This document shows positions 5,610 through 33,400 of a DNA stretch of 45,983 nucleotides, piece by piece. A program made the translations under genes and the position numbers. The stretch comes from Chromera velia (Eukaryota > Sar > Chromeraceae), in NCBI GenBank assembly GCA_018398765.1, contig JAHBMJ010005729.1, forward strand, positions 21,688 through 67,670, read 5' to 3'. The number at the start of each line of letters is the position of its first letter. The first letter of the stretch is position 1. The notes below the pieces were generated by a model. The model was not told the origin of the DNA, did no database searches, and saw only the letters and a program-made list of their open reading frames with translations.

Positions 5610-6253
5610 ATGTGTTCGAGATGCCGTCTCCGTCTCCAGCCGCAGCTCTTCTCCATTTCTCCTCCTTCTTCTTCGGGGCCGCTGACCGCGTTGGCGTCTC
5701 CGCCTGCTTCTCTTCCATTCTACAGTGTTTGTACTTCCACAAAGGGCAGTGTCCGAAATTTCGGGGCCCTGGGTCACCTGGGCGCGCCTGCTGCCGGGTT
5801 CTACCTGAGGAAAGAATTAGGGCAGCACCTGCTGACCAACGAGGGCGTGCTGGACAAGATCGTGGCGGCGTGTGATGTCAAGTCCAGTGACACGGTGCTG
5901 GAGATTGGGCCAGGGACGGGAAATTTGACTGTGCGTCTGCTTCCTTTAGCTCGGAAGGTTGTGGCACTGGACGTGGACAGACGGATGATCAGTGAGGTAC
6001 AGGGTCGAGCGGTTTCTCTGGGGTTCCGCAATTTGGAGGCACAGCAGCGGGACGCCCTCCGATCTCCCCTGGGTCGATTTGACATTTGCACGGGCAACAT
6101 GCCGTACCAGATTTCGTCCCCGTTTCTCCTCAAGTTACTGGCGCACCGGGCGCCCTGGAGAGTCGCGGTTTTGATGTTCCAGAAGGAATTTGCAGAGCGG
6201 CTCCTCGCAGTGCCTGGGTACAGAAACTACAGCAGACTGGCAGTAAATACAAG
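5610..6253 (+). CDS. Exon 1 of Dim1-like gene (SAM-binding core)
   Basis: Carries the Rossmann-fold core, motif I and motif IV, and ends ...YSRLAVNTR before a GTCGGT donor at 6254. The ATG at 5610 is the first in-frame Met of this open stretch; translation from a later exon start near 5724 is the alternative. Confidence 0.75.
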
Positions 6254-6933
6254 GTCGGTTGGTTTCCTTCTCTTTCTCTCTGTATGTGTGTATGCATGTA
6301 CGTGTGTATGTATGTATGTATGTAATGGTGCGTACAGTGAACGTAAGGCCGGTGGACAGCCCAACAAGCCCCCTTGCATCTTTTTGTGAGAATCTGCTTC
6401 CTGCTTCTGGGTTGGAGTTTTGGTTTCTGTATCTAAGCCATGATATCAGCTGAGTCGATCGTGTGGGCTCTGATGTTTTCTCTCCCTTTGTATTCTCTCT
6501 CTTTCTCTCTCTCTGCCTGTGACACACACACACACTCTCTCNCCCCCCCTCTCTCTCTCTCTCTCTCTCTCCCTCCCTCCTCTCTCTCTCTGTGTGTGTG
6601 TGTGTGTGTGTGTTGCAGGCTGTTCTGCAAGGTTCTTCCCATCTGTCTTGTGCGGCCGGGAAGTTTCTCCCCCGCCCCCCAGGTTCAGTCGCTCGTCGTC
6701 AGGATAGAGCCCCGAGAGAGGCCGAGAGGACTGGACTTTCTGGAGTGGGAGGGCATGACGCGACTGCTGTTCAGGAGGAAGCGGAGACAGATGCACTCAA
6801 TCTTCCTCAGCCCCAACGTGGTCCGAATGCTGGACTCCAACTACAGAACGTGGTGCTCCCTCCAGGGAAGAGCGCCCGTCCTCAAACCGATGAAGGTCAG
6901 TCAGCTGGTCAGATACCTGCCTCTCTCTCTCTC

Positions 6934-6998
<65 letters not shown>

Positions 6999-8109
6999 TC
7001 GTACGTACGTGTGGGTGGGTGTGGGTGTGGGTGTGGGTGTGGGTGTGTGGGTGGATGTGTTGGTGGGTGGGTGGCTGGATGGGTGAGAGAGGGAGAGAGG
7101 GAGTGAGTGAGAGAAGGGGGGGATGGAGAGAGGGACAGAGAGTTTGTTTGTTTGAGATATAAAGTGTACATTGAAATGGATAGAGGAGGATCCTGTTGCG
7201 TTGCGTTTTGACTCTTGTCTTACGGGCTCTGACACTCATCTCAATGCATTGCCCACACAGTGTCTACATGTGCTCGTGTGTCTGTATGTGTGTGTGTATG
7301 TATGTATGTATGTATGTATTGTATGTATGTATGAAGGAATGAATGTGTGTTTGTTTGTGTGTGTGTGTGTGTGCCTTTAGGCTCTTGTGAGGGAGGCACT
7401 GAACGACAGCGGCATTGCCCACAAAGTTCCTGTGCTGACGGAGGCCGAAGAATTCTTCAAGCTCCTTGCGGCGTTCCACAGGAAAGGCCTCAGGTTCGAT
7501 CGTGCATTCATGCCTCGATCAGAGGACCCGGAAGAGAGGAGGGCAATGCCGGTGTCTGTGTTTATTTTCATACAGAGTTCATTTATTTATTTTTTACTCT
7601 GTATGCATGCAGGTTCGTGAATGTCTCAGAGGACCCGGAAGAGAGGAGGGCAATGTCGGTGTCAAGAGTTTGCAGGCGCGTGGCGCCTCCAGGAGGTGCG
7701 CAAGGGAAGGGGGGGGGTTGGACTGGGAGTTTACAGAATTCTTTATACATACATACAAAAATACATACATACATACATGCATATTCTGTATGAAAGTAAA
7801 TGCAGGTGCGCAAGGGAAGGGGGGGGTTGGACTGGGAGTTTGCATTTACTTTCATACAGAATTCTTGATACATACATACATACATGCATATTCTGTATGA
7901 AAGAAAATGCAGATGCGCAAGGGAAGGGGGGGGTTGGACTGGGAGAAGAAGAAGACGAAGACGACGAAGAGGAAGAAGAGGAAGACGAAGAAGATCGGCT
8001 TGGCGCATGGGAGACTGTAGAGGATGGTCGGTCGTCTTTTGTGGTTTCTTTGTTTCTCTGTTTCTTCGTTTCTTTCTGTTTTTTTTTTTTTTAAGCAAAG
8101 GTCGCTTGA
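5610..8109 (+). CDS. DIM1: Dim1/KsgA-family rRNA adenine N6,N6-dimethyltransferase
   Basis: Likely methylates the two adjacent adenines near the 3' end of small-subunit rRNA, using S-adenosylmethionine. Exons 5610-6253, 6619-6895, 7381-7493, 7613-7695, 7913-8026 and 8096-8109 join in phase (414 codons plus stop). GQHLLTNEG is at about residues 71-79, SAM motif I VLEIGPGTGNLT at 96-107, and the catalytic motif IV is NMPYQISSPF at 163 (family NLPY). FSPAPQVQSLVVRIEP and the C-terminal RRKRRQMHSIF...NYRTWC match eukaryotic Dim1 better than bacterial KsgA. The Dim1 body ends at FHRKGLRF; an unusual acidic tail follows. The first 60 residues are Ser/Pro/Leu-rich and could be an organelle-targeting peptide, or the true first exon may lie upstream. 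The last three introns except the final one derive from hairpin insertions. Confidence 0.85.
6519..6612. repeat. CA/TC/TG dinucleotide tract with an ambiguous base
   Basis: A run of CA, then CT, then TG units in intron 1 of the Dim1-like gene. Position 6542 is an N. The TG run directly precedes the acceptor. Confidence 0.95.
6619..6895 (+). CDS. Exon 2 of Dim1-like gene
   Basis: Acceptor is a TG run then TTGCAG; donor is GTCAGTCAG. Encodes LFCKVLPICLV, the PAPQV-SLVVRIEP signature and the Dim1 C-terminal helical region. Phase is consistent at both ends. Confidence 0.85.
6921..7080. repeat. TG / GGGTG microsatellite
   Basis: CT run, then about 30 TG units, then GGGTGT and GGTGGGTGG variants, in intron 2 of the Dim1-like gene. 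A TATG run follows at about 7285-7335. Confidence 0.95.
7381..7493 (+). CDS. Exon 3 of Dim1-like gene (end of the conserved body)
   Basis: Acceptor TGCCTTTAG ends at 7380. Encodes ALVREALNDSG through AFHRKGLR, matching the final helix of Dim1 proteins. The 3' boundary AG|GTTCG is repeated at 7611, where it becomes the next acceptor. Confidence 0.82.
7494..7663 (+). mobile_element. Introner-like insertion 1 in the Dim1-like gene
   Basis: A 38-bp exon segment at 7519-7556 is repeated at 7626-7663 (one mismatch); weaker similarity extends back to GTTCG at 7494 and 7613. The core at about 7557-7612 has arms TACAGAGT and ACTCTGTA and ends in ATGCATGCAG. Removing 7494-7612 (119 bp) restores the frame. 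Confidence 0.72.
7613..8109 (+). CDS. Exons 4-6 of Dim1-like gene (acidic C-terminal tail)
   Basis: Exon 4 (7613-7695) encodes FVNVSEDPEERR...RVAPPG. Exon 5 (7913-8026) encodes AQGKGGVGLG then an acidic run with EEEDEDDEEEE and LGAWETVED. A GTCGGT donor at 8027 and a T-run acceptor ending TTTTAAG at 8095 give a last exon of KVA and a TGA stop at 8107. Without that splice the frame continues as a Phe-rich stretch to a stop at 8092, which looks like intron. The tail is not part of the usual Dim1 family length. Confidence 0.6.
7696..7945 (+). mobile_element. Two tandem introner-like insertions in the Dim1-like gene
   Basis: A 33-34-bp segment with a G-rich centre occurs three times (7696-7729, 7806-7838, 7913-7945), separated by hairpin cores of 76 and 74 bp. 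The second core has 22-bp arms with one mismatch (ends TGCATTTACTTTC and GAAAGAAAATGCA). Each core ends AAATGCAG. Removing 7696-7912 as an intron joins GGA G|AT GCG in frame. Confidence 0.75.
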
Positions 8110-8414
8110 GTGAAACGCAGAGGGGCTGTACAGAGACTGAAAGGGAAAGCTGTTGAACCTCTCCACCTTCGTTGCTAGCATCTTTCCCCGCTCCGTGAAG
8201 CCTGCGTTTTATGCTGCGGTAAAGATTTCAGACAACATGCAGTTTCTTTCCGCACCTGCGTCAATGGGATTGCATCCATCAACGGTTTCAATGGATTGTC
8301 CTCGGTTTCTTTCCTTTGTTTCGTTTCTGAATTGCCGAATACGTGCGTACAGGAATAGCAAATTCTCGAGTCTAGGGCAGTGTTTATGTTGGACTGTAGG
8401 CGGCTGTCTCTTTC
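8110..8414. other. Downstream flank of Dim1-like gene
   Basis: Probable 3' UTR or spacer. No gene or repeat recognised before the 77-bp array begins. Confidence 0.5.
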
Positions 8415-9573
8415 TGAGCGGTTGCGTTGTTCGTGTTTTTTCTTTTTCTTCTCCGTCCTTTGATTCCTTTGCGTGTGTGTTTTCTGTATGGTGAACTGCT
8501 GCGTTCTTCGTGCTCTTTCTTTTTCTTCTCCATCCTTTGATTCCTTTGCGTGTGCGTTTTCTGTATGGTTGACTGCTGCGTTCTTCGTGTTTTTTCTTTT
8601 CTTCTCCATCCTTTGATTCCTTTGCGTGTGTGTTTTCTGTATGGTGAACTGCTGCGTTCTTCGTGCTCTTTCTTTTTCTTCTCCATCCTTTGATTCCTTT
8701 GCGTGTGTGTTTTCTGCATGGTGAACTGCTGCGTTCTTCGTGCTCTTTCTTGTTTTCTCCATCCTTTGATTCCTTTGCGTGTGTGTTTTCTGTATGGTGA
8801 ACTGCTGCGTTCTTCGTGTTCTTTCTTTTCTTCTCCATGCTTTGATTCCTTTGCGTGTGTGTTCTCTGTATGGTGAACTGCTGCGTTCTTCGTGCTCTTT
8901 CTTTTTCTTCTCCATCCTTTGATTCCTTTGCGTGTGTGTTTTCTGTATGGTGAACTGCTGCGTTCTTCGTGTTCTTTCTTTTCTTCTCCATGCTTTGATT
9001 CCTTTGCGTGTGTGTTTTCTGTATGGTGAACTGCTGCGTTCTTCGTGTTCTTTCTTTTTCTTCTCCATCCTTTGATTCCTTTGCGTGTGTGTTTTCTGTA
9101 TGGTGAACTGCTGCGTTCTTCGTGCTCTTTCTTTTTCTTCTCCATCCTTTGATTCCTTTGCGTGTGTGTTTTCTGTATGGTGAACTGCTGCGTTCTTCGT
9201 GTTCTTTCTTTTTCTTCTCCATCCTTTGATTCCTTTGCGTGTGTGTTTTCTGTATGGTGAACTGCTGCGTTCTTCGTGTTCTTTCTTTTTCTTCTCCATC
9301 CTTTGATTCCTTTGCGTGTGTGTTTTCTGTATGGTGAACTGCTGCGTTCTTCGTGCTCTTTCTTTTTCTTCTCCATCCTTTGATTCCTTTGCGTGTGTGT
9401 TTTCTGTATGGTGAACTGCTGCGTTCTTCGAGCTCTTTCTTTTTTTCTCCATCCTTTGATTCCTTTGCGTGTGTGTTTTCTGTATGGTGAACTGCTGCGT
9501 TCTTCGTGTTCTTTCTTTTTCTTCTCCATCCTTTGATTCCTTTGCGTGTGTGTTTTCTGTATGGCTAACTGTG
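8415..9573. repeat. 77-bp tandem repeat, 15 copies
   Basis: The anchor TGATTCCTTTGCG occurs at 8461, 8538, 8614, 8691, 8767, 8843, 8920, 8996, 9073, 9150, 9227, 9304, 9381, 9457 and 9534, giving spacings of 76 or 77 bp. Copies are nearly identical. On the minus strand the unit has no stop codon in any frame, so long reading frames exist in all three; this alone does not show that it is coding. Confidence 0.95.
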
Positions 9574-11050
9574 TGTTCTCTGTATGTTTAATTGAAGCAG
9601 AAAATGGTGACTTCTTTTTTGTTCGGCGAAAGGCCTCCACGAGGGGTGTCGGAGTCTTTGGAGGAGACGGGGAATTCTTTTCGGCACGTAGCAGCGAGCC
9701 TACTAGTGACACAAGAGGGGGCGGGGGGCTTCTCGAACCTCCGCTTGAATTGCAATCTCGCTCGTCTTCTTTGGATTGGACAAAAATTGCATCATCGGCC
9801 CACTGTGAAGGAGGTGAGCACAACTATGAAGAGCAAATCGAACAAGAATGGCGTATCGGAAGTTAAAAGCAGTTATGTTTAAATGTATATTTATGGGCTT
9901 TAACGACTTTTGTTCAATTCAATCAGGGTACAAGCTTATAACATAATGATAACAAACTAGATAACAAAGTTGAGTTGGTTTAATTACTAGTATATTGAGT
10001 TGGTTTAATTACTAGTATATCTACATAGTTTTTGCAACTTTCTGGTATAGGTTTTTATATTCTTGGGCTTTACACTAGGTTTGACACTAGGTTTTGCACT
10101 ATACCAATATTTATTGAAAGTCAAGAACCTGGTCAAAAGCGATCATCATCATCATACGCCATCGCTATCAGCCTATTTCTAGGCTTCTAGCGTTTAGCGG
10201 CAATGCACGAGGCAGTTTTGTTTGATCCTACAACAGCGTTAAATGATGATTGAGGGTTTTTTCATACATGCCGCGTCCCCATTTATGAGGGGCGGATCTA
10301 ACCTAGTTTATCGATTTGTTCTGTCCTAAGACTACCAGCGATGAAAATAGGCGGGACTTCGATCACCCTGATACAGCTGATCAATCGCGGCTTCATAACA
10401 GGTTGAACAATCAAAACAGAGAGAAAAGAGACAGAGGGGATGCAGGGTAGAACCTTTAAGACACTTCAGTTCTTTTATTGAAAAAAGGCTACCCTTTTAA
10501 TCAGAAAGACCTTAATTGTGCAGAGGTACTACAGCATCCCGCACGTCTTCTATCCCTTCAAAGAACTCCTGCTTAAATTAAATCAAATTCACTAAAGCAC
10601 TCTGGATACTCTCTTTTAAACTCAAAACTAATCTAACTTTTCGACTGTCAAATGCTAGGTTAAATACATAGTTTTTATTATATTATTAATCGATGAGGAG
10701 TGATCGATTTTGGTAAAAGCACTGATCTCATTTAATCTCATTCAAAAAAAAAAATAGAAAAGAAGTTTTAAAATTTTTTTTTTATCATAAGATGATTAAA
10801 AGGTTTGTATTCATTGCAACGAATAATGCTAGAGGTACTGCTTCCCACCTCAGGGGTTGCTAATCGATCAACCGTCTAAAAGATCCACACACTCACACCG
10901 TTGACTGCAGAGGCTATCTGCTGATTCAATGTACCTATAGAATAGAATTGAGGCGGTTAAAGCCTAGGTCAAAGCTAAAGAGCCACTACAGTAACTTAGG
11001 CTGTGGCCAATATACCAGTATATTACTGGATACTAGACTGGATTCAAGTT
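9574..11050. other. AT-rich unique segment, no gene recognised
   Basis: From about 9870 the base composition drops to clearly AT-rich with long A/T runs (for example 10740-10790). A short duplicated unit containing GAGTTGGTTTAATTACTAG lies at about 9971-10020. Weak open frames on the plus strand (9546-9882) match nothing I recognise. Probably old transposon or spacer DNA. Confidence 0.5.
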
Positions 11051-11925: not shown

Positions 11926-14900
11926 AGTCTCTGCTTGGAATTATACCACACAATCTGTCTTGATCAGACGCCAGTCTGCATCTTCTGCCATACCACTACA
12001 TACCACCAAGTTGTATCTTGACAGTAGCTGGAATGTGGTCGAGTCCCACTGCCTGGTGCATGACTTCAGTGGCTTTGCTTGTCCGAATGAGTCAAAGCGC
12101 CGAGCCTGCATCCACACACAAGACGCAACACAGTCTCTGCTTACTCTTCTGATGCTTAGAATACCGCACAATCTGTCTCGATCAGACGCTAGTATTCTGC
12201 ATCTTCTGTCATACCACTACATACCACCCAGTTGCATCTATCGTAGCTATACTGTGGTCGAGTCCCACTGCCGGGTGCATGACTTCAGCGCACTTCAGCG
12301 GCTTTGCTTGTCCGAATGAGTCGAAGCGCCGAGCCTGCATCCACACACAAGACGTACCACAGTCTCTGCTGTTCTTCTAATGCTCAGAATGCCACACAAT
12401 CTGTCTCGATCAGACGCTATTCTGCATCATATGTCATAGGACAGAGTTGCATCTAGACAGTAGCTGGATTATGGTCGAGTGCCACTGCTGGGTGCATGAT
12501 TTCAGCGGCTTTGCTTGTCCGAATGAGTCGAAGCGCCGAGCCTGTATCCACACACAAGACGCAATACAGTCTCTGCTTGCTCTTCTGATGCTCAGAATAC
12601 CACACAATCTGTCTCGATCAGACGCCAGTCTGCATCTTCTACCATACCACTACATAAAACTACCCAGTTGCATCTAGACAGTAGCTGGATTGTGGTCGAG
12701 TGCCACTGCCGGGTGCATGACGTCAGCGGCTTTGCTTGTCCAAATGAGTCGAAGCGCCGAGCCTACATCCGCAAACAAGACGCAACACAGTCTTCGTTTG
12801 CTCGTCTGATGCTTAGAATACCACACAATCTGTCTCGATCAGACGCCAGTCTGCATCTTCTGCCATACCACTACATGATACCACCCAGTTGCATCTAGAC
12901 AGTAGCTGGATTGTGGTCGACTCCCACTGCCAGGTGCATGACGTCAGCGGCTTAAAGTTTGCTTGTCCGAATGAGTTGAAGCGCCAAGCCTGCATCCGCA
13001 AACAAGATGCAACACAGTCTTTGTTTGCTCGTCTGATGCTCAGAATACTACACAATCTATCTCGATCAGACGCCAGTCTGCATCTTCTGCCATACCACTA
13101 CATGATACCACCCAGTTGCATCTAGACAGTAGCTGGATTGTGGTCGAGTCCCACTGCCGGGTGCATGACGTCAGCGGCTTTGCTTGTCCGAATGAGTCGA
13201 AGCACCGAGCCTGCATCCGCAAACAAGACGCAACACAGTCTTTGTTTGCTCTTCTGATGCTCAGAATACCACACAATCTGTCTTGAGCAGACGCTAGTAT
13301 TCTGCATCATATGTCATAGTACACAGTTGCAATTACAGTACCTATACTGTGGTCGAGTGCCACTGCCGGGTGCATAACTTCAGAGGACTTCAGCGGCTTT
13401 GCTTGTCCGAATGAGTTGAAGCGCCGAGCCTGCATCCACACACAAGACGCAAAAAAGTCTTTGTGTGCTCGTCTAATGCTCAGAATACCATACAATCTGT
13501 CTCGATCAGATGCCAGTCTGCATCTTCTGCCATACCACTACATACCACCCAGTTGCAATTACAGTACCTATACTATGGTCGAGTGCTACTGCCGGGTGCA
13601 TGACTTCAGCGGCTTTGCTTGTCCGAATGAGTCGAAGCGCCGAGCCTGCATCCACACACAAAACGCAACACAGTCTCTGCTTGCTCTTCTGATGCTCGGA
13701 ATACCATACAATCTGTCTCGATCAGACGCCAGTCTGCATCTTCTGCCATACCACTGCATACCACCCAGTTGCATCTTGATAGTAGCTGGACTGTGGTCGA
13801 GTCCCACTGCCGGGTGCATGACGTCAGCGGCTTTGCTTGTCCGAATGAGTCGAAACGCCAAGCCTGCATCCACACACAAGATGCAACACAGTCTCTGCTT
13901 GCTCTTCTGATGCTTAGAATACCGCACAATCTGTCTCGATTAGACGCTAGTATTCTGCATCTTCTGCCATACCACTACATACCACCCAGTGGCATCTATC
14001 ATAGCTATATTGTGGTCGAGTCCCACTGCCGGGTGCATGACTTCAGCACACTTCAGCGGCTTTGCTTGCCGAATGAGTCGAAGCGCCGAGCCTGCATCCA
14101 CACACAAGACGCAATACAGTCTCTGCTTGTTCTTCTGATGCTTAGAATACTAGACAATCTGTCTCGATCAGATGCTATTCTGCATCATATGTCATAGTAC
14201 ACAGTTGCAATTACAGTACCTATACTGCGGTCGAGTGCCACTGCCGGGTGCATGACTTCAGTGGACTTCAGCGGCTTTGCTTGTCCAAATGAGTCGAAGC
14301 GCCGAGCCTATATCCACACACAAGACGCAATACAGTCTCTGCTTGCTCTTTTGATGCTCAGAATACCACACAATCTATCTCAATCAGACGCTATTCTGCA
14401 TCTTCTGCCATACCACTACATGATACCACCCAGTTGCATCTAGACAGTAGCTGGATTGTGGTCGAGTCCCACTGCCGGTTGCATGACGTCAGCGGCTTTG
14501 CTTGTCCAAATGAGTCGAAGCACCGAGCCTGCATCCCCAAACAAGATGCAACACACTCTTTGTTTGCTCTTCTGATGCTCAGAATACCACACAATCTGTC
14601 TTGAGCAGACGCTAGTATTCTGCATCATATGTCATAGTACACAGTTGCAATTACAGTACCTATACTGTGGTCGAGTCCCACTGCCGGGTGCATAACTTCA
14701 GCGGACTTCAGCGGCTTTGCTTGTCCGAATGAGTCGAAGCGCCGAGCCTGCATCCACACACAAGACGCAAAACAGTCTCTGCTTGCTCTTCTGATGCTCA
14801 GAATACCACACAATCTGTCTCAATTAGACGCTAGTATTCTGCATCTTCTGCCATACCACTATATACCACCCAGTTGCAATTACAGTACCTATACTACGGT

Positions 14901-17900
14901 CGAGTGCCACTGCCGGGTGCATGACTTCAGCGGCTTTGCTTGTCCGAATGAGTCGAAGTACCGAGCCTACATCCACACACAAGAGGCAATAGAGTCTCTG
15001 CTTGCTCTTCTGATGCTCAGAATACCATACAATCTGTCTTGAGCAGACGCTAGTATTCTACATCATATGTCATAGTACACAGTTGCAATTACAGTACCTA
15101 TACTGTGGTCGAGTCCCACTGCCGGGTGCATAACTTCAGCGGACTTCAGCGGCTTTGCTTGTCCGAATGAGTCGAAGCGCCGAGCCTGCATCCACACACA
15201 AGACGCAAAACAGTCTCTGCTTGCTCTTCTGATGCTCAGAATACCACACAATCTGTCTCGATTAGACGCCAGTCTACATCTTCTGCTATACCACTGCATA
15301 CCACCCAGTTGCATCTTGACAGTAGCTGGAATGTGGTCGAGTCCCACTGCCGGGTGCATGACTTCAGCGGCTTTGCTTGTCCGAATGAGTCGAAGCGCCA
15401 AGCCTGCATCCACACACAAGACGCAACACAGTCTCTGCTTGTTCTTCTGATGCTCAGAATACCGCACAATCTGTCTCGATTAGACGCTAGTATTCTGCAT
15501 CTTCTGCCATACCACTACATACCACCCAGTTGCATCTATCGTAGCTATACTGTGGTCGAGTCCCACTGCCGGGTGCATGACTTCAGTGCACTTCAGCGGC
15601 TTTGCTTGTCCGAATGAGTCGAAGCGCCAAGCCTGTATCCACACACAAGACGCAACACAGTCTCTGCTTGTTCTTCTGATGCTCAGAATACCGCACAATC
15701 TGTCTCGATTAGACGCTAGTATTCTGTATCTTCTGCCATACCACTACATACCACCCAGTGGCATCTATCGTAGCTATACTGTGGTCGAGTCCTACTGCCG
15801 GGTGCATGACTTCAGCGCACTTCAGCGGCTTTGCTTGTCCGAATGAGTCGAAGCACCGAGCCTGCATCCATGCACAAGATGCAACACAGTCTCTGCTTGT
15901 TCTTCTGATGCTCAGAATACTGCATAATCTGTCTCGATCAGACGCTATTCTGCATCATATGTCATAATATACAGTTGCAATTACAGTACCTATACTGCGG
16001 TCGAGTCCTACTGCCGGGTGCATGACTTCAGCGGCTTTGCTTGTCCGAATGAGTCGAAGCGCCGAGCCTGCATCCACACACAAGACGCAACACAGTCTCT
16101 GCTTGCTCTTCTGATGCTCAGAATACCACACAATCTGTCTCGATTAGACGCTATTCTGCATCTTCTGCCATACCACCACATGATACCACCCAGTTGTATC
16201 TAGACAGTAGCTGGATTGTGATCGAGTGCTACTGCCGGGTACATGACGTCAGCGGCTTTGCTTGTCCGAATGAGTCGAAGCGCCGAGCCTGCATCCGCAA
16301 ACAAGACGCAACACAGTCTTTGCTTGCTCATCTAATGCTCAGAATACCACACAATCTGTCTCGATCAGACGCCAGTCTGCATTTTCTGCCATACCACTAC
16401 ATAATACCACCCAGTTGGATCTAGACAGTAGCTGAATTGTGGTCGAGTGCCACTGCCGGGTGCATGTTCGCGTCTTTGCTTGTCCGAATGAGTCGAAGCA
16501 CCGAGCCTGCATCCCCAAACAAGATGCAACACCTAGACGCAACACAGTCTTTGCTTGCTCGTCTGATGCTCAGAATACCACACAATCTGTCTCGATCAGA
16601 CGCCAGTCTGCATCTTCTGCCATACCACTACATGATACCACCCAGTTGCATCTAGACAGTAGCTGGATTGTGGTCGAGTCCCACTGCCGGGTGCATAACG
16701 TCAGCGGCTTAAAGTTTGCTTGTCCGAATGAGTCGAAGCGCCGAGCCTGCATCCGTAAAAAAGACGCAACACAGTCTTTGTTTGCTCTTCTGATGCTCAG
16801 AATACTGCACAATCTGTCTTGAGCAGACGCTAGTACACTGCATCATCTGTCATACTAACCAGTTGCAGCTATGGTCGAGTCCCAGTGCCCGGTGCATGAC
16901 TTCAGCGGCTTTGCTTGTCCGAATGAGTCGAAGCGCCGAGCCTGCATCCGCAAACAAGACACAACACAGTCTTCGTTTGCTCGTTTGATGCTCAGAATAC
17001 CGCACAATCTGTCTCGATCAGACGCCAGTCTGCATCTTCTGCCATACCACTACATGATACCACCCAAATGGATCTAGACAGTAGCTGGATTGTGGTCGAG
17101 TGCCACTGCCGGGTGCATGTTCGCGTCTTTGCTTGTCCGAACGAGTCGAAGCACCGAGCCTGCATCCCCAAACAAGATGCAACACCTAGATGCAACACAG
17201 TCTTTGCTTGCTCGTCTGATGCTCAGAATACCACACAATCTGTCTCGATCAGACGCCAGTCTGCATCTTCTGCCATACCACTACATGATACCACCCAGTT
17301 GCATCTAGACAGTAGCTGGACAGTGGTCGAGTCCCACTGCCGGGTGCATGACGTCAGCGGCTTAAAGTTTGCTTGTCCGAATGAGTCGAAGCGCCGAGCC
17401 TGCATCCACACACAAGACGCAACACAGTCTTTGCTTGCTCGTCTGATGCTCAGTATACTAGACAATCTGTCTCGATCAGACGCTAGTCTGCATCTTCTGT
17501 CATACCACTACATACCACCCAATTGCAATTACAGTACCTATACTGTGGTCGAGTGCCACTGCCGGGTGCATGACTTCAGCGGCTTTGCTTGTCCGAATGA
17601 GTCAAAGCGCCGAGCCTGCATCCCACTGCATCCACACAGAAGACATAATACAGTCTCTGCTTGCTCTTTTTGGATACTCAGAATACCACACAATCTGTCT
17701 CAATCAGATGCCAATCTGCATCTTCTGCCATAGCACTGCATACCACCCAGTTGCATCTTGACAGTAGCTGGAATGTGGTCGAGTCCCACTGCCAGGTGCA
17801 TGATTTCAGCGGCTTTGCTTATCCAAATGAGTCGAAGCACCGAGCCTGCATCCACATACAAGATGCAACATAGTCTCTGCTTGTTCTTCTCATGCTCAGA

Positions 17901-20900
17901 ATACCGCACAATCTGTCTCGATCAGATGCTAGTATTCTGCATCTTCTGCTATACCACTACATACCACCCAGTTGCATCTATCATAGCTATACTGTGGTCG
18001 AGTGCCACTGCCGGGTGCATGACTTCAGCAGACTTCAGCGGCTTTGCTTGTCCGAATGAGTCGAAGCGCCGAGCGTGCATCCACACACAAGACGCAACAC
18101 AGTCTTTGTTTGCTCGTCTGATGCTCAGAATACTGTACAATCTGTCTTAAGCAGACGCTAGCACACTGCATCATCTATCATACTAACCAGTTGCAGCTAT
18201 GGTCGAGTCCTACTGCCGGGTGCATGACTTCAGCGGCTTTGCTTGTCCAAATGAGTCGAAGCGCCGAGCCTGCATCCGCAAACAAGACACAACACAGTCT
18301 TCGTTTGCTCGTCTGATACTCAGAATACCACACAATCTGTCTCGATCAGACGCCAGTCTGCATCTTCTGCCATAACACTACATGATACCACCCAGTTAGA
18401 TCTAGACAGTAGCTGGATTGTGGTCGAGTGCCACTGCCGGATGTATGTTCGCGTCTTTGCTTGTCCGAATGAGTCGAAGCACCGAGCCTGCATCCCTAAA
18501 CAAGATGCAATACCTAGACGCAACACAGTCTTTGCTTGCTCGTCTGATGCTCAGAATACCACACAATCTGTCTCGATCAGACGCCAGTCTGTATCTTCTG
18601 CCATACTACTACATGATACCACCCAGTTGCATCTAGACAGTAGCTGGACAGTGGTCGAGTCCCACTGCCGGGTGCATGACGTCAGCGGCTTAAAGTTTGC
18701 TTGTCCGAATGAGTCGAAGCGCCGAGCCTGCATTTGCAAACAAGACGCAACACAGTCTTTGTGTGCTCGTCTGATTCTCAGTATACTAAACAATCTGTCT
18801 CGATTAGACGCCAGTCTGCATCTTCTGTCATACCACTACATACCACCCAGTTGCAATTACAGTACCTATACTGTGGTCGAGTCCTACTGCCAGGTGCATG
18901 ACTTCAGCGGCTTTGCTTATCCGAATGAGTCGAAGCGCCGAGCCTGCATCTCGCTGCATCTACACAGAAGACGTAATACAGTCTCTGCTTGCTCTAGAAT
19001 ACCACACAATCTGTCTCGATCAGATGCCAATCTGCATCTTCTGCCATAGCACTGCATACCACCCAGTTGCATCTTGACAGTAGCTGGAATGTGGTCGAGT
19101 CCCACTGCCGGGTGCATGATTTCAGCGGCTTTGCTTGTCCGAATGAGTTGAAGCGCCGAGCCTGCATCCACACACAAGACGCAACATAGTTTCTGCTTGT
19201 TCTTCTGATGCTCAGAATACCGCACAATCTGTCTCGATCAGATACTAGTATTCTGCATCTTCTGCTATACCACTACATACCACCCAGTTGCATCTATCAT
19301 AGCTATACTGTGGTCGAGTGCCACTGCCGCGTGCATGACTTCAGCAGACTTCAGCGGCTTTGCTTGTCCGAATGAGTCGAAGCGCCGAGTCTGCATCCAC
19401 ACACAAGACGCAACACAGTAACACTGTCTCTGCTTATTCTTCTGATGCTTAGAATACCACACAATCTGTCTCGATCAGACGCCAGTCTGCATCTTCTGCC
19501 ATACCACTACATGATACCACCCAGTTGCATCTAGACAGTAGCTGGATTGTGGTCGAGTCCCACTGCCGGGTGCATGACGTCAGCGGCTTAAAGTTTGCTT
19601 GTCCGAATGAGTCGAAGCGCCGAGCCTGCATCCGTAAAAAAGACGCAACACAGTCTTTGTTTGCTCTTCTGATGCTCAGAATACCGCACAATCTGTCTCG
19701 ATCAGACGCCAGTCTGCATCTTCTGCCATACCACTACATAAAACCACCCAGTTGCATCTAGACAGTAGCTGGATTGTGGTCGAGTCCCACTGCCGGGTGC
19801 ATGACGTCAGCGGCTTTGCTTGTCCGAATGAGTCGAAGCGCCGAGCCTGCATCCGCAAACAAGACGCAACACAGTCTTTGCTTGCTCTTCTGATGCTCAG
19901 AATACCACACAATCTGTCTCGATCAGACGCCAGTCTGCATCTTCTGCCATACCACTACATACCACCCAGTTGCATCTAGACAGTAGCTGGATTGTGGTCG
20001 AGTCCCACTGCCGGGTGCATGACGTCAGCGGCTTTGCTTGTCCAAATGAGTCGAAGCACTGAGCCTGCATCCGCAAACAAGACGCAACACAGTCTTTGCT
20101 TGCTTTTCTGATGCTCAGAATACCGCACAATCTGTCTCGATCAGACGCTAGTATTCTGCATCTTCTGTCATACCACTACATACCACCCAGTGGCATCTTT
20201 CGTAGCTATACTGTGGTCGAGTGCCACTGCCGGGTGCATGACGTCAGCGGCTTTGCTTGTCCGAATGAGTCGAAGCGCCGAGTCTGCATCTTCTGCCATA
20301 CAAGACGCACCACAGTCTCTGCTTGCTCTTCTGATGCTCAGAATACCATACAATCTGTCTCGATCAGACGCTATTCTGCATCTTCTGCCATACCACTACA
20401 TGATACCACCCAGTTGCATCTAGACAGTAGCTGGATTGTGGTCGAGTGCCACTGCCGGGTGCATGACGTCAGCGGCTTTGCTTGTCCGAATGAGTCGAAG
20501 CGCCGAGCCTGCATCCGCAAACAAGACGCAACACAGTCTTTGTTTGCTCATCTGATGCTCAGAATACCACACAATCTGTCTCGATCAGACGCCAGTCTGC
20601 ATCTTCTGCCATACCACTACATGATACCACCCAGTTGCATCTAGACAGTAGCTGGATTGTGGTCGAGTGCCACTGCCGGGTGCATGACGTCAGCGGCTTT
20701 GCTTGTCCGAATGAGTCGAAGCGCCGAGCCTGCATCCGCAAACAAGATGCAACACAGTCTTTGTTTGCTCGTCTGATGCTCAGAATACTACACAATCTGT
20801 CTCGATCAGACGCCAGTCTGCATCTTCTGCCATACCACTACATGATACCACCCAGTTGCATCCAGCCAGTAGCTGGACTGTGGTCGAGTCCCACTGCCGG

Positions 20901-21444
20901 GTGCATAACGTCAGCGGCTTAAAGTTTGCTTGTCCGAATGAGTCGAAGCACCGAGCTTGCATCCGTAAACAAGACGCAACACAGTCTTTGCTTGCTCGTC
21001 TAATGCTCAGAATACCACACAATCTGTCTTGAGCAGACGCTAGTATTCTGTATCATCTGTCAAACCAACCAGTTGCAGCTATGGTCGAGTGCCACTGCCG
21101 GGTGTATGAATTCAGCGGCTTTGCTTGTCCGAATGAGTCAAAGCGCCAAGCCTGCATCCACACACAAGACGCAACACAGTGACACTGTCTCTGCTTGCTC
21201 TTCTGATGCTCAGAATACCACACAATCTGTCTCGATCAGACGCCAGTCTGCATCTTCTGCCATACCACTACATACTACCCAGTTGCATCTGTACAGTAGC
21301 TGGATTGTGGTCGAGTCCCACTGCCGGGTGCATGACTTCAGCGGCTTTGCTTGTCCAAATGAGTTGAAGCGCCGAGCCTGCATCTGCAAACAAGACGCAA
21401 CACAGTCTCTGCTTGTTCTTCTGATGCTCAGAATACCACACAAT
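11926..21444. repeat. About 221-bp satellite, 43 copies with higher-order structure
   Basis: The anchor GCTTGTCC (or a one-base variant) occurs 43 times from about 12077 to 21347, mostly 205-240 bp apart. Units contain TCTGTCTCGATCAGACG, CATACCACTACAT and GGTCGAGTCCCACTGCC. Indel variants (extra TTAAAGT, a GTTCGCG form, a doubled ACTTCAG, a CACCTAGACGC insertion) recur at regular multi-unit intervals. The short 60-80-codon frames on both strands are by-products. Confidence 0.96.
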
Positions 21445-23663
21445 GGGGGGGTTGGCGTTCTCATCTGCAAGGTTTGAGGGCGACTGATGCTAAAGAGGTG
21501 GGAAAGGCTCATAATCAGTAGCAGAAGGGGTGCTCCTTCCCTCAGAAGCCTTTGGAGGAGGCTCATCTTCTGGTTTAAAGTTGTTCTTTGTCTCTTCGTC
21601 TCCTTCAATTCATCAGAACTGGACAAATTCTCATCGTTGGAGACCTGTTATTAAAACAGGAGGACTCCGACTGCTAGAGGAGCGGGGGAGGCATGCCCTC
21701 CTCCCCCCCCAAGTTTGGTCAGCATCCCTAACCATCCCGGCGGTAGTGGTGGTTTTCTCCTTTAAAAAACTTTTAAAAAGTCTTAGTTAAGTCTAGAACG
21801 AAGTTGTTTAATTTAAACATACCTATCTATTATTAGATTCATTAAAATATTATCACATGTACAAGATATCTGCCAATCAAATTCATCTAAAAGATAATCT
21901 TAAAATAAATATATTTAATCTCATGTTGAGATTGCATTGGATGTGTAATACCTAGTGTAATACCGATTTTAAGAATTTGAAATTGACCTAAAAATTCACA
22001 CTAGAGTTTTACAGCTAGGGAGAAAAGGTTAGGAGGCTGTATAAGGCATATAATTATTATATATATAATTTAATTGTAGCAGCTTACAAACAATTTAAAA
22101 AAAAACAGATGATTTTGCCTCTTATACACCCCACTGTCGCTCTACAGTTAGCCCTGCTATAAAGCTTACAAGGTACACAAGGTTTTATTTACAAATTTTT
22201 ATGCAGTATAGAGTTCTTCTAGGAGTTTTTCTGTACTACATTATATTTTATATACAAAGAGTGTTTCAGTTATTTTCAGTGTTCTACCTGCTGAAAAATT
22301 AAGAACTATACCAGAATCGCGTGCAAATGTATGCACAAATTATTGATTAATATATATTTGAGAATGTATTTGTTTCTTACGATCTGTTTTCCCCTCTTCC
22401 AAGCGATTATTGAATTGTTTGCAATTCAAAACATCGGCTTCCTTTATTGAGGTGATGCAGTCTCTGTCGAAAAAATGTCAGCTCCATCACCCCAGTGGTG
22501 GTAGTCAAATATGTACGGACGGATTGAACAGATTTTATTTAGCAGGAAATTGCGGCACTCTGTTTCGTATTGGGTATCCAGAATTAATCCGTCTCTGCAG
22601 CACGTATACTTCTCCGCGGTGGCCCTCTTTCTTTCTTTCTTTTTTTGTTTCCCTTGCATGCTCTTCCTTTCTTTTCCACCGCCTCTCTTCACCCCCCTCC
22701 TTTATTTGCTGCTTGGCTGATCAAGAACACGCCTGTATGCAAAGAGAGGAGCTAGAGGAAAGAAGGGAGGGAACAAAGTTCTTCGATCAATCTGCACGGG
22801 CCGGCCGGGCTTCTGTTTGGTTTTCAAAATCAGAAATTGTTTCGATTCTCTCTCTGCTTAATTCAACAAAGTGAAGGAAGGCCTCTCTTTGACTTTCGCT
22901 GTCTGCAAAGAACTTGCTCTTTCCCTTTCTACAAACGATCTTCTAAGAATCCTTGTTTCCGAAAATCTTCGACTCTTCTCGAATTCCGTTGTACGCCAGC
23001 TCGCCCCTCTTCCAGACAAGAGGAGGGTGCGACGTAACAAAGTAGTTAACTGCATGGGGGGGTACCCCTGCAGAACCCATCTCTCTCGTCTCGGTTCCCT
23101 CCCTACTTCACGATTTTGGTTCTTCTTTTCTGGTCGCTCGTTCAACACCTGCAGAACTTGTTCCCTTTCTTTTCCCCCAGTTGACTCAGCTTCCTCTATT
23201 TCTTTGTTCGTTGCTTCCTTCTTGCTTCTCATTGATCAAAAAGAGGTACGTCGCAATTGGCAAGGAAGGAAGGAAGGGAGGAGGAAGACTCCCTCCCCTC
23301 CTTAATTCCTTTTTCTATCTTCACACACGCCTACGGACTGCACAACGGAGTGACCTCTTTGAGAGGTCGGAGAGAGCAGACAGGCACGGTAAGGAGGGAG
23401 GAAGGGGTGTGAAGGGAGGAAGAGGGGTAAAGGAGAAACGGAATGAAGGGGAGGAGGGAAGGAAATGCAAAAAAAGAAGATATATTAATAAATAAATTTG
23501 CAAGATCGATGAAGTGGAGGAATGATGATTGATTGATTGATGGATGAGACGATCTCTCCGTCCCTGGCCGAGTCATCATCCAGACAAATACAGAAAGACA
23601 GACAGACAGCCTGTCATGCTCCCTTCCCTCCTCCCTCCCTCCCTCCCTCCCTCAGGCTCATCA
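21445..23663. other. Unique spacer, AT-rich then mixed, no gene recognised
   Basis: 21790-22400 is AT-rich (TATATATAATT, ATTAAAATATTATC). 22400-23640 has normal composition with short TTTC, GGAA and GATT runs; frames at 22410-22874 (plus) and 23232-22858 (minus) match nothing I know. The final part contains a CTCC run at about 23620-23653 and would include the 3' UTR of the giant minus-strand gene. Confidence 0.5.
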
Positions 23664-23717
23664 TCAACCGGTAATGTTGGTCAGGAAGAGTGCGTCGTAG
23701 TCAGTCTCGGGGTCCAA
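23664..23717 (-). CDS. Terminal exon of the giant gene
   Basis: After acceptor GCATGCAG at 23718 comes [17 protein letters not shown] and a TGA stop, in the phase left by the preceding exon. Short acidic C-terminus. Confidence 0.65.
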
Positions 23718-30400: not shown

Positions 30401-33400
30401 GCTGTTCTACGATACTCTGAGGGGTGGTTGGCCGCTTGGCTGTTGGGCTCTGGTCCTCTTCCACCAGCATGCCGGGGGCAGGGGGGGGCTCAGTCGGCTG
30501 CTGAGCCTCAATAATGTCTGCGTAGCGGTTCCACTTCTTCCAGGACCGCGCGGCGGCGGACCCGGGCATACTGTTCGGGAGGGTCTCCTCTTCCCCCCTC
30601 CATGCTTCGGGGTTCGAGAGGGGGAACGCCTGTCTGCAGGCGAGGAGACACTCGACAAGTCTCTGGTGGAGACGGTAGACCTCGTCGATCCCACTCAGGA
30701 GAATTGACGCACGCACAAACAGGAGGTTCCCCGCGAGCTCTACCCGAGACTGCTCCTTCATCCCCGGGAGAGTCGGGTGGTATTGACCCGAAAAGAATCC
30801 CTCCCGGGGCGTCTGGCCGATGGCCCCGATGACCAGTCGGTGCACCAAAACGTGGCCTTTCGGGACCTTCTCGGGTCTATCCAGGTCCTGCCACACCCTT
30901 TTCTGCCTCCAGTCGTAGTGGTGGGAGGTGTCCAGTTTCATCAATTTGAGAATCTCCGCGACTGGCCCCCCCTTCTTGAGGGCGGTATCGACGTTCACGA
31001 GGTGAGTGGTCAGTTTGGGAGAAATCACGGGCTTCCAGTGGGAGGAGCCGGGGCCTAGAGGCACGACCATATTACCAAAGGGAATCGAGAGCCCTTGCCA
31101 TCCTTGCTCGAGCGACCCGTCTGCCGCTACAGGGAGGGCGCGGGTGCTTCTCTCAGGACCGAAGAGCATTCCTCTGTCAGTCACATACAGAGACGCACCG
31201 CCTGCATCGGCAGGCATTGCACTCACATTGGCACCCTCCAGTCCCCCCATCTCCTGAGAGAACCACTCGGAGAGATTCGTTTCGTCTGGACGGAACTCTG
31301 CCGGAAGGCGACGACACGTAATCCCCACAACTGCCTGGTGGGGCTCCCATCGGGGGGTCGCCTCCACCGCTGCAACGATGGCAGTGATGCTGCCCCGTCG
31401 CCGCTTTGATTTGGCAGCCGCGAGGCGACGCCATTTTTGACCGATACGCGCTGCTGCTCTGTGCATTTCGTGTCTTCGTTCACGTGCGTGCAGATCCAGG
31501 GCTGCCTCCAGCTCACCTGCCTCGTAGACTCCCTTGATATAATTTTTTTTCTGCTGTTGTTTCTTTTCCTTTTTCGTTTCTGCACGACTCTTCTCGAGCA
31601 GGGCCACCCTCCTTGCAACCTCTCTGAGAGACCTCAAGTCTGCAACCACGTTGTTTTCTTTGTTGAGCTTCGAGCGGTTTCCGCAAGAGCAGCCACAGCA
31701 GACGAAGCACAGACGTCTGCACGGAAAACAGGCGAGGAACCTAACGACGTTCCCGCAGGCAGTGACAGGCTCTCCCTGCTGTGTCCTCTTGATGAGCTTC
31801 TCGTTGTTCAGATATCGGTTGATGAGCCAATTTTCATCACCCTCTCCTGAGTTCTGGTCATGGAAAAATGCCCTGCATACAGACAGAAAAACATCCGCGT
31901 GTATTTGTTTGTGTACAGTGCAGAAATATCATTTCGAGGCAATGACTGGCGCCGCTTTCTGTCTGTTGAGATGGCTACCGGAACAGAGAAAAAAGAAACA
32001 AATGTCTTCGTACTAGAGCCACGGAAACACGAAAGGACCCCTGGAGGCCCATTGACGCACGCAAAATTTGGTCAACAAATGCGTGCGTCAATAAATGTCT
32101 TCGTACTAGAGCCACGGAAACACGAAAGGACCCCTGGAGGCCTGGCCATTGTGGGCTCTTCGCATGGGATGTGTTTCGAAAAAAAGTTCCAACTTAATTC
32201 TCATGGGTGTACAGACGCACGTTGCCCACTGAATGGGCAGAAGAACAATCACTCATTCAATTAAAAACGCAGCAGGACCACCGACACCGGCAGATTCCTT
32301 CCTTTCCTTTTTTCTTTCTTTCTTTCTTTCTTTCCTTCCTTCCTTCCTTCCTTCCTTCTTTCTTTCTTTCTTTCTTTCTTTCTTTCAAAGGACCGACTGA
32401 CTGACAATGTTCCGATTCCAAGGAGGAGCAGCAAAATCGCGATGAGGAGGAACATCGCGGGGTTTGCTGCAAGTGCAACGAGGTCCTTTGGCTTCGCTCT
32501 CTGTGTCTCCTCTTCCTCCTCCGGGACCTTTTCTGCCGTTGCCCCGGCAGTGATGACGGAGGCGGCGTCGGTAGTCGTCGTGGTCACCTCCGCAGTTCCC
32601 GTCACCTGGATGGACCCGAAATCCGTCAGGTGCTGCGTCAGACACCTCAGGGGACCGTCAGTAGTCACTTGAGTGGCCGTGGTGACGCCTGTGGTGCTCC
32701 AGTTGCCTGTACCCAACTCTCCTGCTGTGGAGTCCCAGAAAGCGCATGTCTGCTCGATGGGCTCGTTGTTTGTGTTGTACGTGACGGCAACGCGGGTGAC
32801 AGGAACGTACATTTCGATGAGCACTGTGGTGGGCAGACTGATGGTAATCTCCTGGTCGCATCTGTACAGCGTGATACCCGACCCTGCAGATTGGGAACTG
32901 AGGGCGCTTGAGTAATAATGGGTATTTCGAGGATGGGAGGTGAAGGAAACAGCAGTGAGGTAAATGGGGGACTGGTCATTGCAGGTCGCGGACGTGGTTG
33001 ATCTGGCCGGCAGGTATCCACTCAACCGTGGCAGTCGTATGCTCAGGCCCGTAGTTGTGTCTGCCATCTCGACGACTGATCCTGTCAGCGAAGTCTCGGA
33101 CAGAGTCCTGGCAACTAAGGTGAGGCTACCAGAGGTGAGGGTCTGCGTGGCAGAGCCTGTAGTCAAGTTTCGCACCAGAAGCCTCGCAGCTTGCTGGGCT
33201 GCTTCCACAATGGAGTCGGCAGCCGAGAGAGCAGAATTGGAGATCGTCAGGCTGTCGCTATCGAGATCACATGCAACTTTGTACTCGGGAGTGCCGGTCG
33301 TGTTCAGAGTCCGGTTGGAGCACGTTGTGTTCACCCTGGCATCGTCAAACGTGTATTTGTTGAAAGTTGAGAGGGAAGTCGAGAGACCGGAGAGGACGGA

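What the first reader, a model, noticed from the sequence alone, without database searches (positions are those of the whole stretch)
7494..7945. Three hairpin insertions turned one Dim1 coding segment into new introns
In the tail of the Dim1-like gene, exon sequence is repeated at 7519/7626 and three times at 7696/7806/7913, each copy separated by a 55-76-bp hairpin core ending in ATGCAG. Cutting 7494-7612 and 7696-7912 rejoins the frame (CAG|GTTCG and GGAG|ATGCG). The donor of each intron comes from one copy of the repeat; the acceptor is formed where the core meets the next copy. This is the logic of introner elements, but the duplicated flank is 33-38 bp or more, and two insertions are stacked at one site. 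Introners are known from several protists; this form with long flank duplications is, as far as I know, not standard.
Basis: partly seen in the sequence, partly recalled or inferred. Interest (0 to 1): 0.9.

Follow-up and report, generated by a model that had tools for sequence, protein, structure and literature searches.

The report
Hairpin inserts that become new introns
In the alga Chromera velia, tiny hairpin-shaped repeated sequences sit inside genes between two copies of about 40 bases of the target, and the duplication supplies splice sites, so that in at least one gene the inserts are cut out of the messenger RNA as new introns.

Summary
The window is Chromera velia CCMP2878. Two introns of its Dim1-like gene (7494-7612, 7696-7912) consist wholly of duplicated exon sequence plus core. 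A deposited C. velia protein (sources include the MMETSP transcriptome; contig of 1,891 bases against a gene of about 4.25 kb) reads exactly the predicted splice product. The core belongs to a family with 656 exact 16-mer hits in the genome, control 0. In a sample taken in contig order, 64 of 70 testable sites have the core between long locus-specific direct repeats, against 37 of 730 random places. At 53 of 68 analysed sites one core lies strictly between two copies: repeats 19-68 bp, median 40. An unrelated hairpin family does the same in 5 of 5 complete copies held. The repeats are enriched for donor sites. Corrections: site 2 is best read as one insertion plus tandem duplication, and its middle core no longer folds. 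Best reading: an introner-like element with unusually long, variable target duplications. How it moves is unknown; no strain lacking the inserts was available.

The parts
5610..9863 (+). Dim1-like rRNA adenine dimethyltransferase gene (coding part) that carries both new introns; exons about 5610-6253, 6619-6895, 7381-7493, 7613-7695, 7913-8026, 9601-9863
   Evidence: tblastn of P0001 to the window; best database hit is C. velia CCMP2878; intron edges read from sequence
7494..7612 (+). intron of site 1, 119 nt, GTTCGATC...ATGCATGCAG; consists wholly of first repeat copy plus core
   Evidence: P0001 reads ...RKGLRFVNVSEDPEERR..., i.e. splicing at exactly these bases
7491..7556 (+). site 1, first copy of the duplicated exon segment (intronic from 7494), 12 nt longer inside
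7557..7609 (+). site 1 hairpin core; folds, z = -3.6 (7557-7612 folded)
7610..7663 (+). site 1, second copy, 54 nt; all but its first CAG is exon
7696..7912 (+). intron of site 2, 217 nt, GTGCGCAA...GAAAATGCAG; holds two [repeat + core] units
   Evidence: P0001 reads ...APPGDAQGKGGVGLGEEE..., i.e. splicing GGAG|GTGCGC to TGCAG|ATGCGC
7694..7729 (+). site 2, repeat copy 1; exonic up to 7695, then supplies donor AG|GTGCGC
7730..7803 (+). site 2, core A: left arm lacks 8 nt, no longer folds (z = +0.28 for 7734-7805)
7804..7838 (+). site 2, repeat copy 2 (intronic)
7839..7910 (+). site 2, core B: stable hairpin (-24.8 kcal/mol, z = -7.6 for 7839-7912)
7911..7945 (+). site 2, repeat copy 3; exonic after its AG (splice junction 7912/7913)
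32000..32142 (.). insertion of an unrelated second hairpin family (core 32052-32091) between two identical 50-bp repeats

Best explanation
A short non-autonomous hairpin element (arms around TTTACTTTCATACAGAATTC, insert mostly 50-75 nt) inserts at a staggered break whose two nicks lie roughly 20-70 nt apart. Filling in duplicates the target (median 40 bp) on both sides. The duplicated stretch can carry splice signals. If it is exonic and contains AG|GT, splicing from GT in copy 1 to AG at the core/copy-2 join removes core plus one copy and restores the coding sequence: a new intron. This is the case at both Dim1 sites. If it spans an existing exon/intron edge, the core falls into a longer intron. 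Later, [repeat + core] units can expand in tandem, as at 7696-7912. Shown: structure, genome-wide recurrence, and the Dim1 splice product as a deposited protein whose sources include a transcriptome. Inferred: the staggered break and fill-in, the order of events, and that insertion rather than duplication in place created each site. Unknown: the enzyme.
For: Both Dim1 introns consist only of repeat and core, and P0001 equals the spliced reading. Core family: 656 exact 16-mer hits, control 0. Sampled sites: 64 of 70 with long repeats against 37 of 730 random places; 5 of the other 6 show weaker repeats of 19-29 bp by eye. At 53 of 68 analysed sites one core lies strictly between two copies, with no further arm within 120 bp outside: repeats 19-68 bp, median 40, sd 11.5, identity median 97%, 13 of 53 perfect. 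Copy 1 holds a strong donor motif at 20 of 53 of these sites against 11.6% of 1,153 nearby windows (p = 9e-7), and donor or TGCAG at 33 of 53 against 26.5% (p = 5e-8) (on 58 sites agrees). At 13 of them a donor cut lies 0-11 nt inside the repeat edge. Silent insertion at an existing donor: L007, where deposited protein P0121 joins ...NYVQ to IELVRR, skipping core and second copy, and L067. Second hairpin family: 5 of 5 complete copies held, with repeats of 29-53 bp.
Against: No strain or species without the inserts could be examined; the paralogue's C-terminal exons were not found. Only the two Dim1 introns are shown to be new introns; L011 and L035, which looked exonic, have existing introns on closer reading, and for L063 I found no splicing pair. 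No autonomous element was noticed, but none was searched for. Insert ends are ragged: 0-28 nt outside CTTTCATACAG at 83 ends; 18 of 53 inserts have one good arm and 1 has none; both are unlike a classical transposon. One of 70 sites (L037) has only an 8-bp repeat. At 8 further sites the donor motif lies 15-42 nt inside the repeat, not near its edge. Pyrimidine-tract acceptors are not enriched (5 of 58 against 10%). P0121 has no transcriptome source named and may be a gene model.
Confidence: 0.77

Rival explanations
1. Intron gain by tandem duplication of an exon segment containing AGGT (the known tandem-genomic-duplication route); the hairpin only happened to lie in, or trigger, the duplicated unit.
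For: Both Dim1 donors sit at AG|GT duplicated in tandem, the logic described in PMC3443670 (passages). True tandem units exist at site 2, and 10 of 68 analysed sites have repeats that contain core sequence.
Against: Duplication of [flank + core] leaves a core after every copy; 53 of 68 sites have one core strictly between two copies. Two unrelated core families show it. Among repeats of this geometry in the held loci and window, 83 of 213 lacked the first family's motif; many of those are window satellites and tandem arrays and two are the second hairpin family, so core-free duplications exist but I did not classify each one.
Confidence: 0.12
2. Retroposition: a small hairpin RNA is copied into a nicked target by a LINE- or Penelope-type reverse transcriptase (target-primed), with the second nick far away. 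A subtype of the best explanation.
For: Variable duplication length (sd 11.5), truncated inserts (18 of 53 one-armed) and ragged ends resemble target-primed insertion. Entamoeba SINE1, thought to be mobilised by a LINE, has TSDs mostly 18-24 bp long in its young class (PMC2996970, passages).
Against: No tail noticed, no reverse transcriptase looked for, and 34 of 53 inserts have both arms.
Confidence: 0.3
3. Cut-and-paste MITE of a DDE-type transposase with an unusually long stagger. Also a subtype of the best explanation.
For: Palindromic arms; 72 of 177 introner families have TIRs and 49 of 130 have TSDs (PMC9860276, passages). Bacterial IS1202-group elements reach TSDs of 16-28 bp (PMC10132070, passages).
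Against: Such transposases give nearly constant TSD length and fixed ends (recalled general knowledge); here 19-68 bp and ragged ends.
Confidence: 0.2
4. Assembly artefact: repeats are unmerged contig overlaps; the velvet k-mer was 71 (PMC4501334, passages) and the single-unit repeats are at most 68 bp.
For: Upper length limit just below k.
Against: 40 of 53 repeat pairs differ in sequence, and the deposited Dim1 protein uses the copy that differs from the intronic one. An overlap error would not place the same core family between the copies again and again.
Confidence: 0.03

Closest known systems
Introners / introner elements (Gozashti et al. 2022, PMC9860276; passages seen)
   Same: Dispersed family of short elements, in part with inverted ends, that create introns; in some families the donor is recruited from the target duplication and the acceptor is carried by the element; mostly no change in mRNA length.
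   Different: The passage gives 3-9 bp repeats for previously characterised families; here 19-68 bp. 'Chromera' does not occur in its main text. Ends ragged; many sites here at existing splice junctions.
Amoebophrya introner elements (PMC7789003; passages seen)
   Same: Alveolate hairpin introns with inverted repeats (8-20 nt) and direct repeats at the borders.
   Different: Direct repeats 3-5 nt there; many non-canonical splice sites there, GT-AG here at Dim1.
Daphnia new introns from staggered-break repair (PMC4202315; passages seen)
   Same: Insert flanked by direct repeats of exon ends, read as staggered double-strand break repair.
   Different: Those repeats are 4-12 bp; here a dispersed family of palindromic cores with shared sequence and longer repeats.
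Intron gain by tandem genomic duplication at AGGT (review PMC3443670, passages; PMC4974935, search listing only)
   Same: Duplicated AG|GT provides both splice sites.
   Different: Here a dispersed repeated core lies between the copies.
Entamoeba EhSINE1 (PMC2996970, passages) and IS1202-group insertion sequences (PMC10132070, passages)
   Same: Unusually long target duplications.
   Different: Mostly 18-24 bp and 16-28 bp; unrelated elements, no intron formation in the passages read.

Membership tests
Introner | Similar sequence dispersed at many loci of one genome | tested here: met
   656 exact 16-mer hits, control 0; 73 site entries from the first 100 hits
Introner | Element creates spliced introns | tested here: met
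   Dim1 sites only: P0001 equals the spliced reading
Introner | Creates introns at many loci | tested here: inconclusive
   Several sites lie at existing splice junctions; no third new intron proven
Introner | Presence/absence between relatives at orthologous positions | not testable with these tools
   No relatives held for this genome; paralogue exons not found
MITE (TIR DNA transposon) | Terminal inverted repeats | tested here: met
   34 of 53 inserts with both arms, 18 with one, 1 with none
MITE (TIR DNA transposon) | Short target duplication of fixed length | tested here: not met
   19-68 bp, sd 11.5
MITE (TIR DNA transposon) | Fixed element ends | tested here: not met
   0-28 nt beyond CTTTCATACAG at 83 ends
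MITE (TIR DNA transposon) | Autonomous partner with the same ends | not tested
   No dedicated search was made
Intron from tandem exon duplication | Adjacent copies without a dispersed foreign core between | tested here: not met
   One core strictly between two copies at 53 of 68 analysed sites

The most novel reading that the evidence does not exclude
C. velia has an insertion machinery, shared by at least two unrelated hairpin families, that opens genes at or near splice junctions with nicks about 40 nt apart and inserts tiny palindromes. By duplicating whole splice sites it makes nearly any hit on an exon edge, or on an exonic AG|GT, silent: a route of intron gain and intron lengthening distinct from known introners with short duplications.
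Probability: 0.4. Interest if true: 0.87.

Novelty: new variant of a known kind. Interest (0 to 1): 0.78.

Why it matters
How introns arise is a long-standing open question, and recent gains with readable scars are rare. Here many sites (extrapolating from the sample, hundreds) keep both scars, repeat and core, some with identical repeats, in a free-living relative of malaria parasites. Long duplications explain in a simple way why an insertion can be harmless, and they make the insertion chemistry testable from sequence. The same scars at existing splice junctions would also show how introns grow.

Tried and rejected
Three insertions at Dim1: for site 2 I prefer one insertion and tandem duplication. 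New-intron reading of L011 and L035: taken up from open frames, dropped when downstream exons pointed to existing introns; the identity of those two genes (cysteine protease, outer-arm docking coiled coil) is recalled, not from a call, as are the names succinate dehydrogenase for L067 (Pfam says FAD_binding_2) and PRORP for L007 (P0121 is named PROP1-like PPR protein). L063 (ArabFuran-catal): looks exonic, no splicing pair found by eye. Codon-model gene finding: too weak to classify sites. Rfam on 7300-8100: 9 matches, all below gathering scores, taken as chance. Pfam on 28 chosen peptides: 5 above cut-off (FAD_binding_2, ArabFuran-catal, Pkinase, EGF types, Gpi1), 4 only weaker hits, 19 none. 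Peptide search with the C-terminal piece alone: nothing. Paralogous empty site: exons not found.

Literature: statements on what is not in print rest on the searches and 71 of the held open-access library. Roy et al. 2023 (dinoflagellate introners) was seen only in a reference list. Supplements of PMC9860276 were not read, so C. velia may be listed there.

Rows dropped before counts: of 73 site entries 3 were untestable (two at locus ends, one running into N). Of the 70, two with repeat score under 14 (L037, L069) were left out, leaving 68; of these 10 have repeats over 68 bp that contain core and 5 have a further arm nearby, leaving 53. Searches used the 58 before the last step. In one search the L089 copy is the same site as L100 and is counted once. 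I did not inspect the 37 high-scoring null places; their scores up to 138 suggest tandem arrays.

On checking I recounted: a draft had said that 58 of 68 sites have a core strictly between two copies; it is 53. Confidence went from 0.78 to 0.77 for that. Exon edges of the gene were corrected by a few bases.

Full report
Identity of the window. The window is part of a 177.8-Mb, 4,040-contig genome. The Dim1-like gene's best hit is C. velia CCMP2878 protein P0001, 498 aa, identical to my 327-aa reading except where I had left out a 22-aa exon piece and at the last residues, where I had read into an intron. Its sources are jgi, uniref, mmetsp, eukprot and metaclust, and its one contig is 1,891 bases long. 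The coding part spans 5610-9863, so that contig cannot be the genomic locus; that it is cDNA is my inference.

The finding itself. Repeats and cores are as described. Intron 7494-7612 is the first copy of a 54-nt exon segment (66 nt in the first copy) plus a core. Intron 7696-7912 is two [repeat + core] units. P0001 reads GLRFVNVSEDPEERR and APPGDAQGKGGVGLGEEE, the products of exactly these two removals. Vitrella and the C. velia paralogue read HFVNV and HFLNV at the place of RFVNV (P0010, P0007), so copy 2 keeps the older exon and copy 1 is the drifting one. Donors of three other introns in this gene are GTCGGT or GTCAGT; the two new ones are GTTCGA and GTGCGC, as expected if they were recruited from exon.

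Folding. Core B folds strongly (z -7.6), core 1 moderately (z -3.6), core A not (z +0.28). Core A lacks 8 nt of its left arm (sequence). The units of site 2 are 97% identical over 78 nt, which points to tandem duplication of one insertion.

Genome-wide. A DNA search with the finding gave 78 matches, a lower bound since only 40 of 102 candidates were scored; the 7 other loci it returned hold a core between repeats of 29-54 bp. The arm 16-mer CTTTCATACAGAATTC occurs 656 times, reversed control 0. From the first 100 listed places I had 73 site entries, 70 testable. Of these, 64 have a repeat score of 18 or more; 37 of 730 random places in the same loci do. Of the other 6, five show weaker repeats (19-29 bp) and L037 only 8 bp. 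Of 68 sites with score 14 or more, 53 have one core strictly between two copies, 5 have a further arm nearby, and 10 have repeats that contain core. For the 53: repeat 19-68 bp, median 40, mean 39.9, sd 11.5; 13 identical; insert 30-97 nt, median 62; 34 with both arms, 18 with one, 1 with none. Insert ends vary: 0-28 nt outside CTTTCATACAG at 83 ends of the 58 sites before the last filter.

A second family. A different core, TTGACGCACGCA...TGCGTGCGTCAA, lies at 32052-32091 between two identical 50-bp repeats. A search for a longer exact word found 4 places. In the loci held and the window, 5 of 5 distinct complete copies have repeats of 29-53 bp (window, L099, L100, L101, L102). Long duplication therefore seems to belong to the insertion process rather than to one element; five copies are few. 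A wider count was not possible.

Where they land. In the 53 sites, repeat copy 1 contains a strong donor motif at 20 against 11.6% of 1,153 nearby windows of equal length (p 9e-7), TGCAG at 20 against 16.7% (p 2e-4), either at 33 against 26.5% (p 5e-8). On 58 sites the picture is the same, and pyrimidine-tract acceptors show no excess, 5 of 58 against 10%. A looser first test gave a weaker contrast (any splice motif 29 of 58 against 28%). TGCAG may be inflated because core ends resemble TGCA; the donor figure is not affected by that. The windows overlap, so the p values are rough. At 13 of 58 sites a donor cut lies 0-11 nt inside the repeat edge, with most of the repeat on the exon side; at 8 further sites it lies 15-42 nt inside. 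Worked examples: in L067 the exon ends ...NWKSQ|GTCGGT at the repeat edge, and the next exon (VLNHKNGKDEIVPG) starts about 370 nt beyond the second copy, so this intron seems older than the insert. In L007 the deposited protein P0121 joins ...NYVQ to IELVRR, skipping core and second copy. So two outcomes exist: new introns (shown for Dim1) and longer old introns. Whether junctions are preferred targets or merely survive selection is open.

Mechanism. One core strictly between two copies, divergent copies, ragged ends and variable length fit insertion at a break with distant nicks followed by fill-in. They fit less well a fixed-stagger transposase or plain tandem duplication. Target-primed reverse transcription and end-joining capture both remain possible. 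The enzyme is unknown and was not searched for.

Comparison. Introners are the closest kind: PMC9860276 (passages) describes 3-9 bp TSDs in earlier families, TIRs, and donor recruitment from the TSD. Amoebophrya introners have 3-5 nt direct repeats (PMC7789003 passages), Daphnia new introns 4-12 bp (PMC4202315 passages), 213 introns in one survey 4-30 bp, mean 11.4 (PMC11782384 passages). Long TSDs exist elsewhere, but shorter than the median here. In the held library the only paper holding Chromera with introner, or Chromera velia with miniature inverted-repeat, was the Amoebophrya paper, whose passages seen name Chromera in other contexts.

Verdict. Real; the Dim1 splice product is a deposited protein; genome-wide; and a new variant of introner-like intron gain with long variable target duplications.

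Noticed in passing
window 32000-32142: Second hairpin family (TTGACGCACGCA arms) between two identical 50-bp repeats; the same family in L099, L100, L101, L102.
   Followed up: partly
window about 40750-40865: Two right-arm copies of the second hairpin family near imperfect repeats of about 25 bp (CTTCATGCTGYCATTGAC).
   Followed up: no
window 8423-9579: 77-bp tandem array of about 15 copies inside the long intron of the same gene (about 8027-9600).
   Followed up: no
window 11943-21044: Satellite-like array, about 221-bp unit, about 41 copies, 77% matches.
   Followed up: no
L011 about 1466-1860: Both ends of what looks like one intron (donor side and acceptor side) carry separate insertions of the first hairpin family.
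   Followed up: partly
L030 (C67 near 23492-23705), L039 (C90 near 37534-38061), L071, L079: Tandem arrays with three or more core arms, suggesting that units expand after insertion.
   Followed up: partly
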